Shown: piece after piece, positions 47,485 through 63,307 of the stretch
How positions within the stretch are numbered: the first letter of the stretch is position 1
Layout of the letters: each line of letters opens with the position of its first letter
Assembly: GCA_041861885.1 (NCBI GenBank)
Contig: JBGVUE010000001.1
Location: 732,001-796,000 of the forward strand
DNA length: 64,000 nucleotides
Direction of reading: 5' to 3'
From: Haloimpatiens sp. FM7315
Lineage (GTDB): Bacteria > Bacillota > Clostridia > Clostridiales > Clostridiaceae
The notes under the pieces: model-generated
What the model was told of the DNA's origin: nothing
What the model saw: only the letters and a program-made list of their open reading frames with translations
Database searches by the model: none
Made by a program: the position numbers and the translations under genes

Positions 47485-48326
47485 TTAGTTATTAATTTTT
47501 GGTTCTAGTGCTATTCTTAAGGTATCGCCTAGAACATTAAAACTTAATACTGTAAATAAAATAAATAACCCGGGAAATAATGCCATATGAGGTTTATCAG
47601 AAATAAATCCCTGAGCGTTTTGAAGCATGCTTCCCCAAGAAGCCATAGGCTGCTGAACTCCAAGCCCTAAAAAGCTAAGGGCAGATTCCGTAAGAATTGC
47701 ACCTGCTATATTTAGAGTAGACATTACTATTACAGAAGATATAACATTTGGAAGAATATGTTTTAGAATTATATGAAGATTACTAGCTCCTAGAGATTTT
47801 GAACAAAGTACATATTCTCTTTCTCTATATGAAAGGGTTTCACCTCGTACAACTCTAGCTATTCCCATCCAACCAAATAATCCTATTATAAAAATTATAT
47901 TGTTTATACTTGCCTCTAAGTAAGCGTTGGCAATTAAAATAAGAAAAAAGTTGGAATACACATAAGTATATCTATTAATCGCATAATAGCACTATCTACA
48001 ATTCCTCCTAAATAACCGCTAGTAACACCTATTATGGTTCCAAGGGATATGGATACAAGCATTGAGAGAAATCCTACTTTAAGAGAAATCCTGCCCCCAT
48101 ATAAAGCTCTTGTAAAATAGTCTCTACCTAGTTCGTCAGTTCCAAATATATGTAAAATGCTAGGACCTGCTAACTTGTTTGATACGTTAATTTTATTAGG
48201 ATCGTAAGGAGATAAAAATGCGAATATTGAGCTTAATATTATAATAGTTAAAATTATTAAGGATATTAAAGCAAACTTATTTTTTCCAAAATGAATTTTT
48301 AAATTAATTAAAAGTCGTTCCTTCAT
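47485..48326 (-). CDS. Peptide/nickel-type ABC transporter permease (DppC/OppC-like), frameshifted
   Basis: An inner-membrane permease of about 281 residues. The N-terminal frame has LLINLKIHFGKNKFALISLI, a membrane helix, and HIFGTDELGRDYFTRALYGG, the OppC N-terminal signature, then stops at 47934. The second frame continues from ILIANAYLEASINNIIFIIG with the permease EAA-type loop AKSLG-like SKSLGASNLHIILKHILPNV and LSFLGLGVQQPMASWG. Adding one base to the A6 run at 47944-47949 restores MCIPTFFLILIANAYLE. It overlaps the upstream permease by 3 bp. It is the last gene of the operon; no ATPase genes follow. Confidence 0.9.
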
Positions 48327-49279
48327 TATTTATCCACCACCCTAATTCTTGGATCTACAATTCCATATAAAATATCCGAAATTAAATTACCTAAAATAAG
48401 TAACATAGAAGATATCATTGTTATTGTCATAATCACAGGATAGTCCCTATTGAATATAGCTTCTATGCCAAATCTTCCCATACCTGGCCATCCAAAAATT
48501 GTTTCAGTAATAAAGGCACCAGAGATTAATTCTGGTAGACTCATTCCCAATATGGTTATTAAAGGTAAAATTGAGTTTTTTAAAATATGATTGTGTAAAA
48601 GCTGCCTTTTAGATAAACCTTTACTTAAAGCTGTTAGTACATAGTCTTCGCTTAATTGAGTTAAGGCGCTGGAACGAATATATCTAGTAAGAACCGCTAT
48701 ATTTGGAAAACACAGCACAGCACAGGGCATAATGCTATGTTTTATTAAATCAGAAGTTGTGTGAACTCCGATAGTTCTCATGCCAGAGGTTGGAAGCAGT
48801 TTTAATTTACTTGAGAATAGTATTACTATTAACATAGCAAACCAAAAGCTAGGAATAGATATACCTATATAAGATATAGAGGTTAGTATATTATCTAAAT
48901 GCGAATTTTTCTTTAAGGCGGATATTAATCCTAAAGGTATAGATATTAAAACTGAAATTATCATTGTAACTCCCATAAGACTTATAGTTGTTGGAAGTCT
49001 TTGCTCTATTTCTTTTAGAACTGGTTCGTGAGTTATATAAGAATAGCCAAAATTTCCTCTTACGCAGTTATTAAGCCATTTTACGTACCTTGTGTATACT
49101 GGGTCATTTAATCCTAAACTTTCTTTTATTTTTGCAATTTGAATGGCACTCATTTTAGGATTAATAAAAGCATGAGCTGGATTTCCAGGTGCTAAGTTTA
49201 TAAGTGCAAAGGAAATTATAGATATAAAAAATAACATTGGAATGGCTTGTAAAAATCTTTTAATTAAATATTTTTTCAT
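48326..49279 (-). CDS. Peptide/nickel-type ABC transporter permease (DppB/OppB-like)
   Basis: A 317-residue permease with six helices. LIKRFLQAIPMLFFISIISF then INLAPGNPAHAFINPKMS is the OppB/DppB N-terminal signature. RTIGVHTTSD precedes the central helices, and LSKGLSKRQLLHNHILKNSI is the EAA-type loop contacting the ATPases. LISGAFITETIFGWPGMGRF is also conserved. The stop codon overlaps the next gene's start. The ATG at 49279 follows a weak GGTGAATT. Substrates could be peptides, nickel or other small solutes. Confidence 0.92.
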   Translation of the reverse strand: MKKYLIKRFLQAIPMLFFISIISFALINLAPGNPAHAFINPKMSAIQIAKIKESLGLNDPVYTRYVKWLNNCVRGNFGYSYITHEPVLKEIEQRLPTTISLMGVTMIISVLISIPLGLISALKKNSHLDNILTSISYIGISIPSFWFAMLIVILFSSKLKLLPTSGMRTIGVHTTSDLIKHSIMPCAVLCFPNIAVLTRYIRSSALTQLSEDYVLTALSKGLSKRQLLHNHILKNSILPLITILGMSLPELISGAFITETIFGWPGMGRFGIEAIFNRDYPVIMTITMISSMLLILGNLISDILYGIVDPRIRVVDK

Positions 49280-49430
49280 AATTCACCAACTTTCAAATTT
49301 ATAAAATGATAATTAAAACAATAAATACTTTTTGAATATAGTATATATAAGATTTACTAATATATAAAGAGGACATGAATGATGTATAACCAAACATGTC
49401 CCTGAGGTAAGTAATCTTACTTACAAATGA

Positions 49431-51037
49431 TTATTCTTGTACATAATATAATTTTGATAAATCTTCAAACATGTATATAGGAACTGTTTTAGCTTCTTCT
49501 ACTCCACCAATATTTCCGCTAACACCAATCATTGAAGTTGCATAATCAATGTTGTATTGAACAGCATCTTCTGCTAATTTCTTTTGTATAGTTTCATACA
49601 TTTCTTTTCTCTTAGCTTCATCGGTTTCTATAGCAGCGGTTTTCCAAATTCTGTCTAATTCTGGATTTGAATAATTAGCCCAGTTCATAGTTCCCTTGGT
49701 TACAAAAAGACCAGAATAAGAATCAGGATCAGTTCCACAAACATAAGCATTAAGAGTCATGTCAAAAGTTTTTGGAGTTTCTCCAAATACTTGAGAGAAA
49801 AATGCTTGTTGTTCAAGAGGTACAGGTTTAACATTTATACCAATAGCTTTTAAGTTTTCTTTGATAACGTTAAATTGATTTATATCACTTTCACTTCCTG
49901 CTATGTAACCAAATTTTAGAGTTATATCTTTTTCATTAGCTTTTTTCATAAGCTCTTTTGCTTTATCTAAGTTAAAATCGTAATGTTCAACTTTATCTGT
50001 ATAGTATAAAGTGCTTGGCGGGAATACAGAATTTGCAGGTTTAGAATTTTCTACATTTTCAAAAATACTTTTTAATAAATCTTGTTTGTTAATAGCGTAA
50101 CAAATAGCTTGTCTAACTTCTTTTTTGCTAAATATCTATTTTTGAAGTCAAATATTGTGTAATTTGGCATTGATTCATCGTATTTGTAAGTCTTGAATTT
50201 AGAGTTTTTTGAATAAGTGTTAAATTTCTTTTCTGATAAATAAGTTGCATTTATTTCACCATTTTCAAAAGCAATTGAACTGCTATTTTTATCTCCAGCT
50301 ACTTTGTATACTACTTGTTCTATATGAGGTTTTCCAGCAAAGTAATCATTAAATCTTTCAAGAGTTAAATGATCGCCTTTTTTCCATTCTTTAAATTTAT
50401 ATGGACCAGAACCTACTGGATTATTATTTTTTTCAGATTTTGCTAGATCCTTTTCTCCTTCAAATACATGTTTTGGTATTGGACGTAATCCACCTAAAGC
50501 ACCTTTAAAAGGCATATAAACTTGTGGCAATTTTATTTGAAGTGTTAGATCATCTATTTTTTTCATTTCAAATTTCTTTCCGCCTATTAAATAGACTTCT
50601 CTATCACTTATGTTTTGTTTTTCATCCCAAATAGTGTTTATTGAAAATATTATGTCATCAACAGTTATTTTCTTACCGTCATGCCATTTTAAATTATCTT
50701 TCAATTTAAGGGTATAAGTTAGTTTATCTTTTGATTCTTCTATCTTATCTGCTAGATAATATCTAGTTTCATTTGAATCCATTAGGTATAAAGGACTAAA
50801 CAAAGCGTTGTTTACAGTAAAAGTTACTCTGTTTTCTTGATAATAAGGATTCAATTTAGTTGGATCACTTCCAAAAGCAAAAACCATAGTGCCGCCGTCT
50901 TTAATTTTGTCTTTTTTAACTGTAGAGGTAGCAGAAGTTTTTGATGATGCGTCTTTTGCAGTAGAACTTCCACAAGCCACAAGACCCAAGCTACAAGTAA
51001 CTGCAAGTAAAAGACTTAGAATTCTTTTATTTTTCAT
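49431..51037 (-). CDS. ABC transporter substrate-binding lipoprotein (SBP family 5), frameshifted
   Basis: A lipoprotein of about 535 residues. A signal peptide MKNKRILSLLLAVTCSLGL leads into lipobox V-A-C. The SBP_bac_5 fold has GGTMVFAFGSDPTKLNPYYQ and YTLKLKDNLKWHDGKKITVD, then NPVGSGPYKFKEWKKGDHL. The frame stops at 50072. Adding one base to the T6 run at 50121-50126 restores LAKKEVRQAICYAINKQDLL, which joins LMKKANEKDITLKFGYIAGS to the end. AAAGGGGG precedes ATG 51037. It heads the minus-strand operon with two permeases. The binding specificity is not evident. Confidence 0.92.
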
Positions 51038-54618: not shown

Positions 54619-54972
54619 GGGGGCGTAATGGTTTCGACGGGGGTGTGCTGCTCCTGGGAAGCGAGTCGAGGGCTCCATGGACCCGCGTTAAAAAACTGTG
54701 GATTTAAATATAAACGCAAACGATAATTTAGCATTAGCAGCTTAGTATAGCCGCTCGTCAGCCTAAGAGTCCCACGACTTAGGGCCTGGCGTCGACAGTG
54801 GGGAACCGAGCTCTACAAAGCTTTGAGTAGAGAACGGAATTTATGAAGCTACTAAAACCAAAAGCCTGTCCTTAGGCGTTTGGTAGAGGGAATGTTAAAA
54901 TGAGGAATGCACTCGGAGATGCCCAGGGGTAGGCGCTTTCGGACAGGGGTTCGATTCCCCTCGCCTCCACCA
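54619..54972 (+). ncRNA. ssrA: tmRNA
   Basis: The 5' end GGGGGCGTAATGGTTTCGAC and the 3' end TTCGATTCCCCTCGCCTCCA then CCA pair as a tRNA-like acceptor (GGGGGCG with CGCCTCC). The CCA is encoded at 54970-54972. The tag frame runs from GCA at 54716 to the stop TAG at 54743-54745 and encodes ANDNLALAA, ending in the usual degradation signal. The length of 354 nt is normal for a one-piece tmRNA, and the gene looks intact. tmRNA genes are frequent insertion sites for mobile elements, and the genes after it here are accessory. Confidence 0.98.
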
Positions 54973-55294: not shown

Positions 55295-55402
55295 GTAAAC
55301 TTATTTCAAGAAATAAGATGCTTTTTTACATAATGAATAGTTCAAATTTTTTATAAATATATAGAATATCATAAGGTTTTTATGTATTTAAAGGGGTATA
55401 TT

Positions 55403-56392
55403 ATGAATAAAGAATACGTTTTAAATAAAATCAATCCTTATTTAAACAGTGAAGGAAAATTAGGTGAAAATAATTTTAGTAAATTATTTTCAGTACTCAC
55501 TAGGCAACAACAGTATGAAATAATTAATATTTTAATAGAAGCAGATATTGAAATAGACTATGATAATTTTAATAATCAGAAACAGAAATTAAAAACAAAA
55601 AATACTGATCCACATATAGAAAAATTAAACAAGCTTTCAAATGAGCAACTATGTGTAATTTACCAGCAAGGAAATAATCGAGCTATAGATGCACTTGTAA
55701 ATAATAATCTTAAGCTTGTATGGAGTAGAGTAAAAAAATATAGCAATAGGTATAAGCATAAGCTGGATGATGAAGATTTGTTGCAATATGGAATTATAGG
55801 ATTAATGAAAGCAGCAGACAAATTTGACTTAAAAAAAGAAGCTAAATTCACAACTTATTGTACATGGTGGATAGATCAACAGATACTTAGAAGCATAGCT
55901 GATTATGGATTTACTATAAGAATACCAGTTCATTATTTCGATCAAATAAATTGTTTATTAAGAATATTAGGACAAAATCCGAATTGTTCAAAACAGCAAA
56001 TATTTGAAGTGGCAAAAGAGAAGGGAATAGATAAAGAGAAATTTGAAGAAATACTTATGATAATTCAAAATATAATATCGCCAGCTTCACTAAATGCTTT
56101 TGTTGGAGATGAAGAAGAGAGTGAATTAGGTGATTTTAAGGTTGATGATATAACACCTACGGTAGAGGAGCAAGTTGAATATAATCAACTCAAAGAAACT
56201 ATTGATATGATTTTAAATACCTTAACAAATAAGGAAAAAGATATTTTAGAATTAAGATTTGGACTAAAAGATGGTATAGATAGAACATTAGAACAAGTTG
56301 GTGTTAAATATAAAGTTACAAGAGAAAGAATAAGACAAATAGAGGCAAAAGCTCTAAGAAAATTAAGACATTCATCCAGATCAAAAAGTTAA
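55403..56392 (+). CDS. RpoD-like sigma-70 family factor in accessory region
   Basis: A 329-residue sigma factor. The N-terminal 75 residues resemble region 1.1. Regions 2.1-2.4 run from ALVNNNLKLVWSRVKKYSNR through YGIIGLMKAADKFDLKKEAK and TYCTWWIDQQILRSIADYGF to TIRIPVHYFDQI (about 88-175). Region 4 ends with RTLEQVGVKYKVTRERIRQI then EAKALRKLRHSSRSK, almost identical in pattern to housekeeping RpoD. It should bind core RNA polymerase and recognise promoters close to the vegetative class. ATG 55403 with AAAGGGG is used. The helicase gene starts 25 bp after its stop, so the two are co-transcribed. A sigma factor paired with a helicase in an accessory block is unusual. Confidence 0.92.
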   Translation: MNKEYVLNKINPYLNSEGKLGENNFSKLFSVLTRQQQYEIINILIEADIEIDYDNFNNQKQKLKTKNTDPHIEKLNKLSNEQLCVIYQQGNNRAIDALVNNNLKLVWSRVKKYSNRYKHKLDDEDLLQYGIIGLMKAADKFDLKKEAKFTTYCTWWIDQQILRSIADYGFTIRIPVHYFDQINCLLRILGQNPNCSKQQIFEVAKEKGIDKEKFEEILMIIQNIISPASLNAFVGDEEESELGDFKVDDITPTVEEQVEYNQLKETIDMILNTLTNKEKDILELRFGLKDGIDRTLEQVGVKYKVTRERIRQIEAKALRKLRHSSRSKS

Positions 56393-56417
56393 AAGATTTT
56401 ATAATGAGGTGAAATTT

Positions 56418-59400
56418 ATGATAGATATACAAGGATATATAAAAAATAAGATAGAACATTATTTAGATGCCTCAGGAACTATTATTGTTTTAAAGGGCAT
56501 AGATATTAAATTAATTGAAAATAATCTTTCTATTGATATTGAAGAAATGTTAGACAATAAATTAAACTATTTTTTAAAATTAGCTCAATCAGGTAGAAAA
56601 GTAATCATTTATGATGAATATTTAGCACTTTATGATTTGGTTCTTATGCAGTATAAAAAAATAATAATATTAGAAAACAATATATTTATCAATTATTATC
56701 CTCTTCAGGTTGAACTAAGGGGGAAAGACTAAATGCTTTACTTAATCATTTTGATGAGGAAAAAGAAGGAGATAAATATGAAATTGGAAATATAGCTGAA
56801 TTAACAGCTATATACGGAAATATTAAGATTATTAATGATAGGTATTATGTAACTTATAATAATATAATTTCAGATGAAAAAGAGCAAATATTTTTAATTT
56901 TTCCTAAAGACTTTACAGCTATTGAAAAAGAGGAAACAGAGTATACTAGTTTATATTATGAAATATTAGATGAAGAAGATTATGTATTAATGATTGATAG
57001 TATTTTAAAGGAAGATAGAAAGACCATACATATAATAGAGAAAAATACAAGCTTGAGCCAAATGCTAATTAAAGATAAGTTAATGGTGTTAAAGTATATT
57101 TTACAGGGTAGCATAGAAATTAAAATTGTACAATTAAGAGAAAAGAGAAAAGAATCTACTGAAAGAGAAGAATTTTTAGATATTCTAAAAAAGCATTGGG
57201 GTCATAATAGCTTTAGAAAAATTAAGGTTTATAATATGAATAAACTAAACAATAAAGAAAAATTAGTTGAAGAAATATCACAAAGTGATATTATAACAGA
57301 TATTGTTGAAGAAGCGGAAAAATGTATTGAAAAGAAGGACTATAGAGATCTATTTGTAACAGCACCAACAGGAGCCGGAAAATCAGCAATGTTCCAAATA
57401 CCTGCTATTTATCTTGCTAATAAGTATGAACTCTTTACGATAGTTATTTCACCACTTATTGGGTTAATGAAGGATCAAGTTATAAATTTAGAACTGCATA
57501 ACTATAATTATGCACGCACCATAAACTCGGATATCTCCCCTATTCAGAAACAGCAAATAATTAACGATATTGCAGATAAAAAATGCCATATATTATATCT
57601 TTCACCTGAATCACTACTAAGTAAAAGTGATTTAGAACAGATAATAGGAACAAGAACATTAGGCTTATTAGTAATCGATGAGGCGCACATTGTTACAACT
57701 TGGGGTAAACAATTTAGACCAGATTACTGGTATCTAGGAGATCACTTAAATAAAATGAAGAAATCTCAATTGAAGAAAAAGAAAATGGGATTTGTAATAG
57801 CTACCTTTACAGCAACTGCTATATATGGCGGTATAGAAAATATGTATGAGGAAACAATTGAAAGTCTTAAAATGGTAGATCCAATAACATATCTTGGTTA
57901 TGTAAAGAGAGAGGATATAAATATTAATATCCAGAAAACAGAGCTAATAACGGGAAAAACTGAGTACGAATTAAATAAATTTGATCAATTAATAGAAAAG
58001 ATAGATTATGCACTGATGGTAGATAAAAAAATGCTAATATATTTTCCTACTGTAGCATTAATTAATAGGTTCTGGGACTATTGTATAATTAAAAACTTTG
58101 GTAAGTATATTTCGAGATATCATGGAAAACTGTCAGGATACGAAAAGGAAGAAAACTACCTGAAATTCTTAAAAAAGAAACACATATAATGCTTGCAACT
58201 AAAGCCTTTGGTATGGGAATAGATATAGACGATATAGAAATAGTAGCACATTTTTCTCCAACAGGTAATGTGTGTGATTATGTACAGGAAATAGGCAGAG
58301 CAGCAAGAAGACCGGGGCTTGATGGTGAAGCTTACTACAAATTTATGCAAAATGATTTTAAACATATAAATAGGCTACATGGTCTTTCTGTTGTAAAGGA
58401 ATACCAGCTAATAGAAGTTATTCGCAAGGTATATGAATTACATCAGGAGAATATAAAGAACAATGGAGAAAAAAGAATAACTAAAAAACGTAATGAAATG
58501 CTTATAGATGCAGAAAGCTTTGCACATATTTTTGAAAACCCTTTTTTTAATGAAGATGATGGAATAAATAAGGTTAAAACGGCAATGCTTTTAATTCAAA
58601 AGGATTTCGAGAGAACATTCTCCTTTTCTCCTTTCCATGTAAGACCTATACCATTATTTGAAATTGGATTTTTTGCAATAGATCCATACACTCAAAAAAG
58701 TATAAAAGGGAAATATGGTTCAGTATTGCAGGAAATTGATAACTCAATGCATATATGTTCTGTAAACTTAAAGGAAATATGGGAACATAGCTTTAATAGT
58801 AGATATTCCTTCCCAAAATTTAAGTATATGCTTTACATTAAAGATGATGAACTGACATTTGAATATAAAACAAATATAAGGCCAGCACTAAGCATTAATA
58901 TAGAGTTTCAGAGTAATTACTTACAAAACTATGAAACATATATAAATGCTATAAAGACAATTGTTAATAGATCAATAAGAGAAGAAAAGTTCTATAATAT
59001 AGATGGTGATGAAGGGTTAATAAGTGAATTAATGAAATTACTTTCTGTAAACATATATAAAGCAAGGAGTATTATAGAGACTATAATATCAGCCATGTCT
59101 GTATATCAAAGAGACTACAGTAAGAGTATGCATGGAAAAACATATATGGCAAAGCCCTTAAAATCTGGAGAAGTTAAATATAAATTTATGAATGGATCAA
59201 CTGGATTCTTTAGATGGATTGAAAATGGATTTAATAATATACTTAAAAATATAAAAGATGGGACTTTTTATCTAATAGATGAATCAGGAAATGAAGGCTT
59301 TAAAGAAAAACTACTAATATTAGGGATACTTGAAACTCTTGATATATTAGTGTTTAAAGCACTAGGTGGTAGCAACAGCCAAATATATATTTATGTCAAC

Positions 59401-59639
59401 CAGACAAAGACCATGAAAGAAATAATAGAAAAACCTTGGAGATATAAGAATAGGTTGTTAGAGCTTGTAAGTGAAAGACATGAAATTTCAGTACAAATGC
59501 TCACATATCTATTTGAAGGTGAATTTAGTAATGAAGAAATATGGGAGTTTATCGAAGATTATTTTTGGGGATAATTCCTGAGAAAGTAGTAAGAAATTAT
59601 GAAAAAAAGACAGGTAAGAAATTGGATTTGAATTCATAG
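56418..59639 (+). CDS. Large RecQ-like DEAH helicase with novel flanking domains, frameshifted
   Basis: About 1,074 residues after three repairs: one G in the G5 run 56719-56723, one A in the A6 run 58171-58176, one T in the T5 run 59562-59566. Residues 1-300 match nothing I know. The helicase core has Walker A A-P-T-G-A-G-K-S (about 315-322), ISPLIGLMKDQVINLE, ILYLSPESLLS, V-I-D-E-A-H (about 419-424), TFTATAIYGG, LIYFPTVALINRFWDY, ATKAFGMGIDIDDIE and DYVQEIGRAARRPG. No RQC or HRDC domain is evident in the 450 residues after it. ATG 56418 has GAGGTG. It sits between a sigma factor and a KAP NTPase. DNA unwinding is inferred; the biological role is unknown. Confidence 0.88.
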
Positions 59640-59694
59640 TTATAATTGCAATAAATAGATTTGTTATTTGTATAAATTTATGATGGAGGCAAAA

Positions 59695-62100
59695 ATGATA
59701 AAAAAATTAATTATATATTTTAGAAGTGAATTTTATTATTTTATTTTAGGCTTAATATTTAGTGTAACAATTTCAATTATTGATAAAAATAATAATTTGA
59801 AAAATCTAATAAGTAAAAATATCTATCTGTTTATATGGATATTAATTTTATTATTTTTAGCTTTCTCATTAAAATATAAACTGACTAAAAATTATAATTT
59901 TATAGAAAAAGTAAGTGGAAAAATAATAGATTTTGGATGTTTTTTATTAGCATTTTTATTACCTATAGATAGGCTATGTATTAATATAAATAAAAGGTTC
60001 AATGAAAGCTATAAAAGTTTTATTGCTATTTTCATTGTTATAATAATATTTGTGATTATAAAGTTTACAATAAAAAAGAGATGTAAAACAAAGAACATAA
60101 ATAATGATGAAAAACTATTATATAAAAAAAGACAATGCGATTTAAAAAAAGTAAAAGAAGAAATGAAAATATTTAAAACATTAGGGATAAATTCACAATG
60201 GGGAGTTGGAAAAACTTTTTTTATTAATAAACTTTTTGAGGAATTAATAAACGATAATAACGAAATAATAAAAGTTAATGTTTTAAGTTATAAGGATAGA
60301 GATGAACTAAGAAGTTTTTTACTAGATCAAATACAACGTATTTTAAAGAAAAATAGGATAGTTCCTATAAATGTTGAATATGTAACTAAATACTTGAATT
60401 TCATTAAAGGTACTTTAAAGATTGATTTAAGTAGTATATTTAGTGTTAAATCAAAAGATAATTTTAATGAACTTCAAAGCCAATATAGTAATGAAATACT
60501 AGAATTGGATAAAAATATAATTATAATTTTAGATGATATAGACAGAATATCAGATTCAGAAAAAATAAAAAGTATTTTTGGATTTTTATATGATATTATT
60601 CAATTTGAAAATGAAAAAATAAAAATAATTTTTTTATATGATCAATTTAATTTTGATAAAGTAAATATTTCTGAAGAATACTTAGACAAGTTTATTGAAA
60701 CAAAAATTTCATTAAGTAAATTACAATTTAATGAGATTATAATAGAAGAATGTGAGGGAAAAGACTATTTAGATAAATTTAATTCTTTAATGTGTATTTT
60801 AGATGATATTAAAATTTATGATTATTTATCAAAACAATTAGGAAAAGACTTAAAGAATAAAGAATTTAATACATATGATTGTAGCAAATGGGTAAAAGAA
60901 TATATTTTAAAAAATGAATCATTTGGAAATCCTAGAAAAGTTAATAAGTTTATAAATAAGGCAATATATCGTATAAACTCAAATTTATATATAGAGATAG
61001 ACGAATATTTAATTATTGCATTTACCTTTATTGAAATATTTAAGGCTGAAATATTCAATAAATTCCAAGCAAATTCTTTAAATGAGAATATGCTTGATGA
61101 ATATTTTAATGATATAGAGCGGAATGACAAGTTATTTTATGAACTTAATATTGAAACATTATTTTTAAGACTTTTATTAAATTATAAATACAATTTTAGT
61201 GATGATGATAAAGTAAAAGAGGAAAAAAATAAGATTCAAAAAAGTATCTATAAAATGCTGAATTTAAATGAACATAATATTACAGATATAGAAGATTTCT
61301 GTAAAAGAATAGAAGATCTATTTTTAAAAGAATTAAACATTGAAGAAAAATATAAAAAATTAAGTAGTCAATTAAGTTTATGTCCTGGCGGTGCTTTTTA
61401 TATTGGAGAAAAGAACTTTTTACTATTAGAAGGAATTTATATACATTAGAAAAAGACAATGAATATGAAAAATTATTCCAAGTATATGTTGAATTAATTT
61501 TTTGCATATAAAATAGGTGATATAACACTCCATGATTTATTTGTATATTTAAATTTTGATAGAATACTTAATAGTAAAGAATTATTTTATAAAGTTATAA
61601 AAAGTATAATAAATTTAAATAAAATAGAAAAAGTTGAAGATAGTACGTTTAAAAGTTTAATAGATAAACTTTTAAACTACTGGTGTAAATTTGGGATTCT
61701 TTGGAATAATAGTTGGACTATAGATTTATTACTAACAGATTATTTGAAAAACAAAAGTATAAGAATAAATATTATGGATTTTGATAAAAATAAAGTTTTA
61801 GATGAAACATTTGAGAAAATAAAGAAAGAAGTAGAACTATTTAATACTTTTTTAGAGAAAATAGAAAATATATATGATAGTAAAAAATTATCTAGAGATA
61901 CAACACAACCTAGAATAGAAATAAAAACAAAGATTGTTAAAAGCAAAGAATATGAGAATTTAGTAAAGAAAATTAACCAAATCAGTAATGAAAATAAAGG
62001 GTTAATAAAAAAGGAAATATTGTCAATAGGATCAATAAGGGAAGAAATGGAATTGGGAGAACTTTATAAAAAAAGATTAGAAAAGCTAGGAGATAATTAA
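59695..62100 (+). CDS. Membrane-anchored KAP/YobI-type P-loop NTPase, frameshifted
   Basis: About 802 residues after two repairs: one T in the T5 run 61417-61421 (less certain) and one T in the T6 run 61498-61503. Four hydrophobic helices fill roughly residues 10-125, then a basic linker. Walker A is S-Q-W-G-V-G-K-T at about 167-174 and Walker B I-I-L-D-D-I-D-R near 277-284. ESFGNPRKVNKFINKAIYRI is typical of the KAP helical lid. The C-terminus is long, charged and probably coiled-coil. KAP NTPases are named from Kidins220 and PifA, the F-plasmid phage exclusion protein. GGAGG precedes ATG 59695, 55 bp after the helicase gene. Confidence 0.82.
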
Positions 62101-62213: not shown

Positions 62214-62255
62214 AATACCCATTAAAAACCGTTAAGGTCAGAATGGGTATTTTTT
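62214..62255 (+). terminator. Terminator after the KAP NTPase gene
   Basis: AATACCCATT (62214-62223) pairs perfectly with AATGGGTATT (62242-62251), then more T. It closes the sigma-helicase-NTPase block and abuts the stop codon of the convergent gene. Confidence 0.85.
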
Positions 62256-63189
62256 CATTTATCCTTTTTTCTTCTTTTATTTCTAGCTGATTTTCTAGCG
62301 TTTCTTATATTTTGGCAAGCTTGAGAAGAACAGTATTTTTGCCTATTACCATTTTTCACACCTATTTTTCCACAAGCTTCACATATAAAGAGTGTTTTTT
62401 TAGTGTCTGTATCATCCATATTAGGGGCATTGGTTGCTATCCATCTTATTAAGGCATAGGTTGCAATATCAAATACTGAGTCGAGTTTTGGTTCAAGGTA
62501 AAAAGAATTTTTCTTCTCATCAAATTTTACTGAGAGTTTAACATCTGGAATACTTTTGGCAAACTTCTTTAGTGCATCTTTTGAAATTTTATTATCTCTT
62601 AAAATCTTTTCAGCAAGTTTATTCCACTGACTTGTATATTCTAATACAGTTTTAAGATTTTCAATTATTTTAGAATCACCATCTTTAAAACAAAAAATAC
62701 CATAATAAGTTTTGGTTAATTCATAAAGGTTTCTAAGGTCTTTTAAAAAATCAAATAGATTAATTTGTGCAAGTTCTAAAGCTTCTTTTGCTTTTTCTTC
62801 ATACCAACTTCTAGGGGATATGCAGGGATCTTTTATTTCTTTATAATAATCGTCAATATTAGGTATAGAATCATAAATTTTATTGATGTTATAGGGATGT
62901 ATATGTTTGCTACACCATTCTATAACTTTTTTTGATGCCATCACTTCATCATCTTCAATGGGGATAATTTCAAGTGAAAGATTATAAAGATTTATTAATA
63001 TATCTTGAGCGGACAAGTAATATTTTTCTATGGTTTTAGGACTATCATCTATACTAAATTCAGGTGTTAATATAGGTGAAAAGCCTTTATTAAAATCAAC
63101 GTAATAAGTATAAAAACGTGTGGCAGGAATAGAAGGTTCTCCTAATCCACCTATATCACAAATAGAAAGCCAATCACTTAATAGCAAAA
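62255..63189 (-). CDS. CGNR-like zinc-finger protein of a mobile element
   Basis: About 310 residues, minus strand. The N-terminal 260 residues are mostly helical and unrecognised. The C-terminus has a treble-clef-like zinc site, F-I-C-E-A-C-G-K then Q-K-Y-C-S-S-Q-A-C-Q-N-I-R-N-A-R-K, resembling the CGNR zinc finger, and a highly basic end (SARNKRRKKDK). DNA binding is therefore likely. I use TTG 63189 with AAAGGAAG about 10 nt upstream; the GTG at 63196 is too close to that site. It is convergent with the KAP gene and divergent from the HTH gene, which fits a regulator of the element. Confidence 0.65.
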
Positions 63190-63307
63190 AACTCACTTCC
63201 TTTATTTTAAATGAAACTGATTACCGTATGGGTTACCGTTAGAAAATATCTTATGGTGATATATTACAGTAAAATTAAGACAAATACAAGAGAAAGGAGA
63301 ACAAATT

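What the first reader, a model, noticed from the sequence alone, without database searches (positions are those of the whole stretch)
55403..62100. Sigma factor + RecQ-like helicase + KAP NTPase: candidate undescribed (defence?) system
Three plus-strand genes with gaps of 25 and 55 bp form one block closed by a perfect terminator at 62214-62255. They encode an RpoD-like sigma factor, a ~1,074-residue RecQ-like helicase with unknown flanking domains, and a four-helix membrane-anchored KAP/YobI NTPase. The block lies between ssrA, a common integration site, and mobile-element genes. KAP NTPases include the phage exclusion protein PifA, and helicase + NTPase combinations are frequent in defence systems. 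I know of no named system with a primary-type sigma factor. The anti-phage role is inference; an element-encoded transcription or replication module is the alternative.
Basis: partly seen in the sequence, partly recalled or inferred. Interest (0 to 1): 0.85.

Follow-up and report, generated by a model that had tools for sequence, protein, structure and literature searches.

The report
Sigma factor and helicase gene pair

Summary
The block is real, but its conserved unit is two genes, not three. In a tree of 85 related helicases, 33 form one clade (SH-aLRT 100) and all 33 have an RpoD-like sigma gene next door; 0 of the 52 others do, though 16 of these 52 have under 1.5 kb of flank on one side. 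Distances of the two proteins correlate (Mantel r 0.85, 0 of 9999 permutations), and close pairs occur in far hosts, so they move as a unit. phmmer with the window's KAP protein found no relative in 90 loci: the KAP gene is a local neighbour. Close neighbours of the pair match restriction-system models more than proteins of fixed-place control windows do. The sigma keeps the housekeeping -35 reading residues in 31 of 31 readable rows, while the whole protein diverges faster than the helicase in 6 of 6 chosen pairs. I read the pair as a probable anti-mobile-element module in which the sigma brings a RecQ-like helicase to promoters. Defence is inferred, the mechanism more so.

The parts
55403..56392 (+). 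RpoD-like sigma factor (329 aa): short N-terminal domain that may be region 1.1, then regions 2, 3 and 4; ribosome-site-like AAAGGGG at 55390-55396
   Evidence: model of the L050 homologue
56418..59639 (+). RecQ-like helicase gene, in pieces in this assembly (ORFs 56409-56732, 56990-58189, 58189-59574, and a tail to 59639 read by eye); nearest intact relatives 1073-1074 aa
59695..61449 (+). KAP-family NTPase with hydrophobic N-terminal stretches (seen by eye); a neighbour, not part of the conserved unit
61744..62100 (+). ORF after the frame breaks, perhaps the end of the KAP gene
   Evidence: inference
62214..62251 (+). intrinsic-terminator-like hairpin, followed by a U-run
54619..54972 (+). 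ssrA (tmRNA), upstream neighbour

Best explanation
The functional unit is a two-gene, horizontally moving module: a sigma factor of RpoD type plus a RecQ-like SF2 helicase with its own N- and C-terminal parts. I think it protects the cell from mobile DNA. Shown by computation: the two genes are linked by clade, by position and by co-divergence; the sigma has kept the region 4.2 residues that read the ordinary -35 element; the helicase has kept its RecQ-like motor; the neighbourhoods hold restriction genes more often than the control. Inferred: the sigma, alone or as RNA polymerase holoenzyme, marks housekeeping-type promoters, which phages and plasmids need early; the helicase is bound to or recruited by that complex and unwinds or strips DNA there, stopping expression or replication of the invader or feeding it to other nucleases. 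What tells self from non-self is not known; the fast-changing remainder of the sigma is a candidate sensor surface. My odds: functional pair 0.95; defence in the wide sense 0.6; promoter-directed helicase, given defence, 0.55.
For: Clade of 33 helicases, all with an adjacent sigma gene, 0 of 52 outside (the sigma of L006 is the ORF printed). Of 28 genome-contig loci 27 have the sigma upstream on the same strand, 25 of these with a gap of -71 to +20 bp between mechanically called ORFs; L068, and L006 on a plasmid, are divergent. Mantel r 0.85 over 30 loci, 0 of 9999 permutations, best permuted r 0.35. Near pairs from far hosts: G042 (the window's family) with Liquorilactobacillus; Lachnospiraceae with an Erysipelotrichaceae genome. 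In a separate draw of 199 genomes of the window's phylum 5 have a close helicase, and 4 of these 5 have a sigma gene adjacent, one of them (G346) with a helicase nearest to a sigma-less one and the sigma downstream. R584, E585, R586, R588, Q589 identical to RpoD in 31 of 31 rows with letters, 1 gap, with differing codons in 12 loci printed. dN/dS 0.09-0.20 in the five comparisons with dS of 0.8-1.5 (from; the other eight had dS above 2.8 or not defined). Helicase core is RecQ-like (BLM Z 37.9, RECQL5 Z 34.1). Neighbours: type I methyltransferase models match up to 5, type I restriction enzyme 4, type IV restriction 3 of 140 proteins; none of these names is among the 25 families shown, of 36, for 125 control proteins. 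MzaA is a precedent for an RpoD-like sigma in a defence system.
Against: No phage experiment. Several loci lie in ordinary chromosomal surroundings (for example thioredoxin-reductase-like neighbours in 5 of 28, named by eye). The control windows come from other genomes than the test loci and from one fixed place each, and they too gave defence hits (Cas3 and Cas5 models). No nuclease domain was recognised in the helicase; its N- and C-terminal parts are untested for fold. Region 2.2 and -10 residues vary (E407 in 12 of 32, T440 in 11 of 32), so the sigma may read another -10. In the sigma tree the sigmas of the pair are not one clade: two RpoD-like paralogues (L144, L154), whose neighbours were not examined, fall among them, and two changes are needed. 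Viral contigs gave 12 loci with a helicase relative, none with a sigma within the flanks of up to 6 kb held. Of 11 plasmid records hit, I looked at 5: three have the sigma (for L006), one shows none, and one carries no annotation and was not scanned for a sigma.
Confidence: 0.4

Rival explanations
1. Decoy (guard) model: the sigma is a bait for phage proteins that bind or modify the host sigma factor; when one binds it, the helicase is released and harms the cell or the phage DNA. Region 4 stays like that of RpoD because it must look like the real target.
For: The sigma is the faster partner in 6 of 6 pairs that I chose (for example 57.6% against 82.7% identity, L043/L125) while region 4.2 is frozen. 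That phages target region 4 of sigma factors (AsiA, Gp67) is recalled, from no call.
Against: The frozen residues are the DNA-contact ones; R596, recalled as a protein-contact site, varies (R in 19 of 32). This fits DNA reading better than mimicry.
Confidence: 0.15
2. The sigma is only the dedicated transcription factor of the helicase (or of a mobile element), and the helicase does the work in defence or DNA upkeep.
For: Divergent pairs (L006, L068) with a shared intergenic region fit a regulator. A sigma gene is a simple way for a transferred gene to be read in a new host (inference).
Against: A -35 helix identical to that of RpoD gives no private -35 signal; ORFs abut or overlap in 25 of 28 loci, and Mantel r 0.85 suits partners, though it also suits simple linkage.
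Confidence: 0.25
3. Mobile-element transcription or replication module: the pair serves an integrative element or plasmid itself, not the host.
For: Pair found on plasmids (L006, L007, L008); in the window it lies beside a primase-like gene and two large serine recombinases, named by eye.
Against: Among ORFs of the 28 genome-contig loci only the helicase (28) and the sigma (27 in the cluster) recur in more than 6 loci, so no shared element backbone is seen; few relatives in viral contigs.
Confidence: 0.15
4. The reader's three-gene system with the KAP NTPase as effector.
For: 55-bp gap and one terminator in the window; KAP profile match.
Against: phmmer with the window KAP found no match up to E 10 in ORFs of 60 aa or more of 90 loci; of 194 family genomes 2 match at E 1e-20, the window's own and one weak relative; none among plasmids at E 1e-5. 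A single-sequence search can miss distant KAP proteins.
Confidence: 0.03

Closest known systems
MZA (mzaABCDE), MzaA sigma factor
   Same: An RpoD-like sigma factor inside a defence operon; regions 2-4 match MzaA (233 bits, E 1e-68)
   Different: The MzaA model has 726 positions and the match is far under its cut-off of 800; no MzaB-E hit among the six block ORFs scanned; MzaA over cut-off in 0 of 199 genomes of the phylum
PADLOC family C3a193, 'poss. alt. Cas3'
   Same: The helicase matches it over its whole length (L041 1.4e-128, model positions 8-981 of 983)
   Different: A label, not a described system; it also matches helicases without a sigma partner (L080 and L088, the two tested)
RecQ helicases (BLM, RECQL5, bacterial RecQ)
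   Same: Motor core fold, Z up to 37.9; profile match to TIGR01389
   Different: Below RecQ cut-offs (193 against 640, 178 against 219.8); no RQC or HRDC hit in Pfam at E 0.1 for the three helicases scanned; large N- and C-terminal parts of untested fold
DpdF (Dpd system) and PsyrT
   Same: RecQ-like helicases of defence systems; local matches
   Different: NCBIfam DpdF 122 bits against cut-off 550; the partner proteins of these systems were not searched for in the loci
KAP NTPases, PifA
   Same: The third gene has a KAP domain
   Different: Not part of the conserved unit; best PifA stretch is 37 aa, E 8e-8

Membership tests
MZA system | MzaA equivalog over curated cut-off | tested here: not met
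   232.9 bits, cut-off 800
MZA system | MzaB-E proteins in the operon | tested here: not met
   none among the six block ORFs at E up to 1; for relatives only the 25 commonest families of their neighbours were shown
Primary sigma factor (RpoD group 1) | RpoD C-terminal equivalog TIGR02393 over cut-off 354 | tested here: not met
   228.7 bits; the genome's own RpoD is elsewhere, C1:2147899, 414 bits
Primary sigma factor (RpoD group 1) | Regions 2 and 4 present | tested here: met
   PF04542 52.4 and PF04545 59.6 bits, over cut-offs; region 3 below its cut-off (19.9 against 25.3) in the window
Primary sigma factor (RpoD group 1) | Region 1.1 | tested here: inconclusive
   hhalign 25% probability, E 7.7e-4, 12 against 15 sequences; helix-strand-helix-helix-strand in the model
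RecQ family | recQ / recQ_fam profiles over cut-off | tested here: not met
   193.2 against 640.2; 178.4 against 219.8 (L041)
RecQ family | RecQ-like motor fold | tested here: met
   BLM 7aud Z 37.9, 398 residues, rmsd 2.4 (model of L050)
DpdF | NF041063 over cut-off 550 | tested here: not met
   122.5 bits (L041)
C3a193 (PADLOC) | full-length profile match | tested here: met
   window pieces 9e-80 and 6.8e-47; L041 1.4e-128
KAP NTPase | PF07693 over cut-off | tested here: met
   61.2 bits, cut-off 20
Anti-phage defence system | protects against a phage | not testable with these tools
   needs plaque assays

The most novel reading that the evidence does not exclude
A promoter-directed immune system: the cell's own rule for finding genes, the -35 element, is used as the targeting signal. 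A dedicated sigma factor takes a RecQ-like helicase to promoters of incoming DNA, as HsdS or a crRNA does for other systems, or acts as bait for phage attack on RNA polymerase.
Probability: 0.3. Interest if true: 0.87.

Novelty: new variant of a known kind. Interest (0 to 1): 0.62.

Why it matters
Sigma factors are known as parts of transcription. A second defence-type module built round one, after MZA, would suggest that promoter recognition or RNA polymerase itself is a checkpoint against mobile DNA. The pair is compact (about 4.3 kb) and intact in named isolates such as Paenibacillus and Liquorilactobacillus species, so the question can be tested directly.

Tried and rejected
Three-gene system with KAP: rejected. 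Integration at ssrA: no second tmRNA 3' end in this genome; in same-genus G068 a 39-bp copy and a recombinase-like ORF show that ssrA is used as a site in the genus, but nothing ties this block to it. Membership of MZA, RecQ proper, DpdF: not met. Fold of the helicase's N- and C-terminal parts: the lists are filled by the motor core, so no statement is possible; phmmer of the C-terminal part in the PDB found nothing. The N-terminal 700 aa of the fused sigma of L092 looked to me like HsdR N-terminal repeats; Pfam and PDB phmmer gave no support. Loss of core binding in the sigma: considered from the variable region 2.2 residues, dropped because, as I recall, sporulation sigmas vary there too. 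A fit of the sigmas to one clade: not met (two paralogues fall inside).

Papers: the listings (2 of 2 papers; 20 of 906; 10 of 3,233; 12 of 101; 10 of 120; 5 of 5) showed, in titles and abstract starts, no defence pair of a sigma and a RecQ-like helicase; most of the papers counted were not listed. Passages of PMC9523054, PMC12839542 and PMC12458937 were seen, no paper was read whole; the paper that I recall as describing MZA is not held.

Limits of counts. Of the 52 sigma-less rows 16 have under 1.5 kb on one side; 36 of 36 with longer flanks have no adjacent sigma, one of them (L081) has two sigma-like ORFs on the other strand from 448 bp on. L127, L128 and L129 (score under 300) were left out of the tree. 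L056 and L121 were left out of the sigma tree, and L006, L056 and L121 out of the Mantel test. L294-L298 were assigned by best BLAST match, not by tree. The PADLOC neighbour set used 140 of 157 proteins; those of L007, L008 and L067 (17) were dropped for the size cap. That tool shows only the 25 commonest families (of 165 and 36), so the number of neighbour proteins with any hit is not known.
Full report
What is in the sequence. Downstream of smpB and ssrA (tmRNA 54619-54972) lie, all on the plus strand, a sigma factor (55403-56392), a helicase (ATG 56418, end near 59639) and a KAP NTPase (ATG 59695, ORFs to 61449 and 61744-62100), then a hairpin with a U-run (62214-62251; -15.1 kcal/mol, z -4.8) and a converging ORF without a Pfam family. 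The helicase is read in several ORFs, while its two nearest relatives are single ORFs of 1073 and 1074 aa; the KAP gene seems interrupted as well. The interruptions, as I read them by eye against the relatives, lie in or near runs of one base, and peptide-transporter ORFs of the host in the same window (47485-51037) look interrupted too, so sequencing error is a real possibility; decay is the other.

The unit is sigma + helicase. A tblastn search of plasmids with the last helicase piece found 11 records, of which I looked at five: in an Enterococcus faecium and a Lactiplantibacillus plantarum plasmid the gene directly upstream is annotated as a sigma factor, in an Exiguobacterium plasmid a divergent sigma ORF is cut by the record end, a Levilactobacillus plasmid shows none and the fifth record has no annotation. 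In 194 genomes of the family five relatives stand well above the RecQ background: G106 (77% identity), G181 (66%) and G042 (35%), with sigma genes directly upstream, and G031 and G127 without. A scan of genome contigs with the helicase alignment kept the best 80 of 561 relatives. A sigma profile scan of their ORFs found a sigma gene adjacent to the helicase in 28. A tree of 85 helicases (77 of these 80 loci and 8 others) puts the 32 labelled rows and L006 in one clade of 33 with SH-aLRT 100; as L006 also has a sigma, the count is 33 of 33 inside and 0 of 52 outside, the latter checked again, where 36 of the 52 have at least 1.5 kb on both sides. L081 has two sigma-like ORFs on the other strand from 448 bp on. 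Helicases of the clade are 978-1130 aa, apart from the fragment L121. Gaps are -71 to +20 bp in 25 of 28 loci; L068 is divergent, and L061 and L121 have gaps of 146 and 275 bp (ORF starts are mechanical). A separate draw of 199 genomes of the window's phylum held 5 close helicases: three nearest to members of the clade with a sigma upstream, one nearest to a sigma-less helicase and without a sigma, and one (G346, helicase with an inner stop) also nearest to a sigma-less helicase, with an RpoD-like sigma 12 bp downstream. That last one may be a second, independent pairing; it is a single case.

Inheritance. Distances between sigmas and between helicases of 30 loci correlate at r 0.85; none of 9999 permutations reached this, the best 0.35; the nearest neighbour is the same in 18 of 30. 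Close pairs occur in far hosts, such as G042 of the window's family with Liquorilactobacillus, and Lachnospiraceae with an Erysipelotrichaceae genome, which speaks for transfer of the pair as a unit.

The KAP gene. phmmer with the window's KAP protein against ORFs of 60 aa or more in 90 loci gave nothing up to E 10. At E 1e-20 two of 194 family genomes match, of which one is the window's own and the other 30% identical; plasmids have none at E 1e-5. I therefore leave it out of the unit.

The sigma. It matches RpoD profiles (up to 258 bits) below their cut-offs and MzaA (233 bits, cut-off 800) in regions 2-4. The genome's true RpoD is elsewhere (C1:2147899). In 32 sigmas of the pair, the window's included, R584, E585, R586, R588 and Q589 (E. 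coli numbering; their role at the -35 element is recalled) are identical to RpoD in all 31 rows with letters; Q437 and W434 are kept in 31 of 32, T440 in 11, W433 in 13, E407 in 12 and N409 in 5. Codons at the frozen positions differ between the 12 loci printed. So reading of the common -35 element seems to be under strong selection, and the -10 side much less. In all 6 pairs that I compared the sigma is less conserved than its helicase, for example 57.6% against 82.7%, although housekeeping RpoD has short branches. Against a simple picture, the sigmas of the pair are not one clade in that tree: two RpoD-like paralogues, L154 of this genome and L144 of G068, fall among them. An N-terminal domain of about 55 residues is modelled as helix-strand-helix-helix-strand (L050, mean pLDDT 84.1, pTM 0.49) and may be region 1.1; the profile comparison is only suggestive, and the top structural match is a full-length SigA model.

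The helicase. AlphaFold2 on 52 relatives gave mean pLDDT 85.8 for L050. The motor core is RecQ-like: BLM Z 37.9, RECQL5 Z 34.1, and RECQL5 bound to RNA polymerase II Z 29.1. The last is a fold match and shows no function, but it is a case of a RecQ helicase on a polymerase. PADLOC calls the family C3a193, 'poss. alt. Cas3' (1.4e-128 over the whole length for L041). No nuclease family was reported by Pfam for three helicases; the fold of the N- and C-terminal parts is untested.

Surroundings. Of neighbour proteins within three genes on each side, 140 of 157 were scanned: type I methyltransferase models match up to 5, type I restriction enzyme 4, type IV restriction 3, specificity subunit 3, GajB-like 3, type II methyltransferase 3 (E 1e-20; 165 families, 25 shown). 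For 125 proteins of 20 windows taken at fixed places of other genomes of the phylum, 36 families matched, and the 25 shown are mostly Cas3 and Cas5 models with one member each. The control is rough, but the difference is clear. Some loci lie in plain chromosomal contexts. In the window's genome the block is followed by a helix-turn-helix gene, a primase-like gene and two large serine recombinases (named by eye), so it may be cargo of an element.

How it may work. The best reading is a defence module in which the sigma gives the address (ordinary promoters) and the helicase the action. Steps shown: pairing, co-inheritance, conserved -35 residues, conserved motor, restriction-rich neighbours. 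Steps inferred: physical contact of sigma, polymerase and helicase; action on invading DNA; the choice of self and non-self. Rivals are a decoy for phage anti-sigma proteins, a dedicated transcription factor for the helicase, and a service module of mobile elements; each has a direct test.

Novelty. A primary-type sigma in a defence operon is known from MZA, and RecQ-like helicases are known from several systems. The pair as a unit was in none of the paper listings that I obtained (titles and abstract starts of the rows listed only) and is not a named system in the profiles scanned. I rate it a new variant of a known kind, with a chance of being something quite new.

Noticed in passing
L092:6849-9710: Peptoniphilus genitalis has the sigma regions fused behind about 700 further residues (953 aa in all); by eye they look like two repeats, perhaps HsdR-like, but no profile supports it.
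   Followed up: partly
L298:4582-5472: In G346 a helicase nearest to sigma-less ones, with an inner stop, has an RpoD-like sigma paralogue 12 bp downstream: possibly an independent sigma-helicase pairing.
   Followed up: partly
L271 (G068): In a genome of the same genus a recombinase-like ORF of 322 aa follows ssrA and a 39-bp copy of the ssrA 3' end lies about 2.8 kb on: ssrA is an integration site in this genus.
   Followed up: partly
window 47485-51037: Peptide-transporter ORFs look interrupted in frame, which suggests indel errors in this assembly or decay (by eye).
   Followed up: partly
G000:C1:795879-803233: Primase-like gene (901 aa) and two adjacent large serine recombinases, starting at the end of the window: an integrative element next to the block (named by eye).
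   Followed up: no
L154 and L144: This genome and G068 carry another short RpoD-like sigma paralogue (295 and 292 aa); it falls among the sigmas of the pair in the tree; its neighbours were not examined.
   Followed up: no
window 62255-63196 minus: Converging ORF of 313 aa with a cysteine-rich, CGNR-like end (by eye); no Pfam family over cut-off and no relative in the 90 loci.
   Followed up: no
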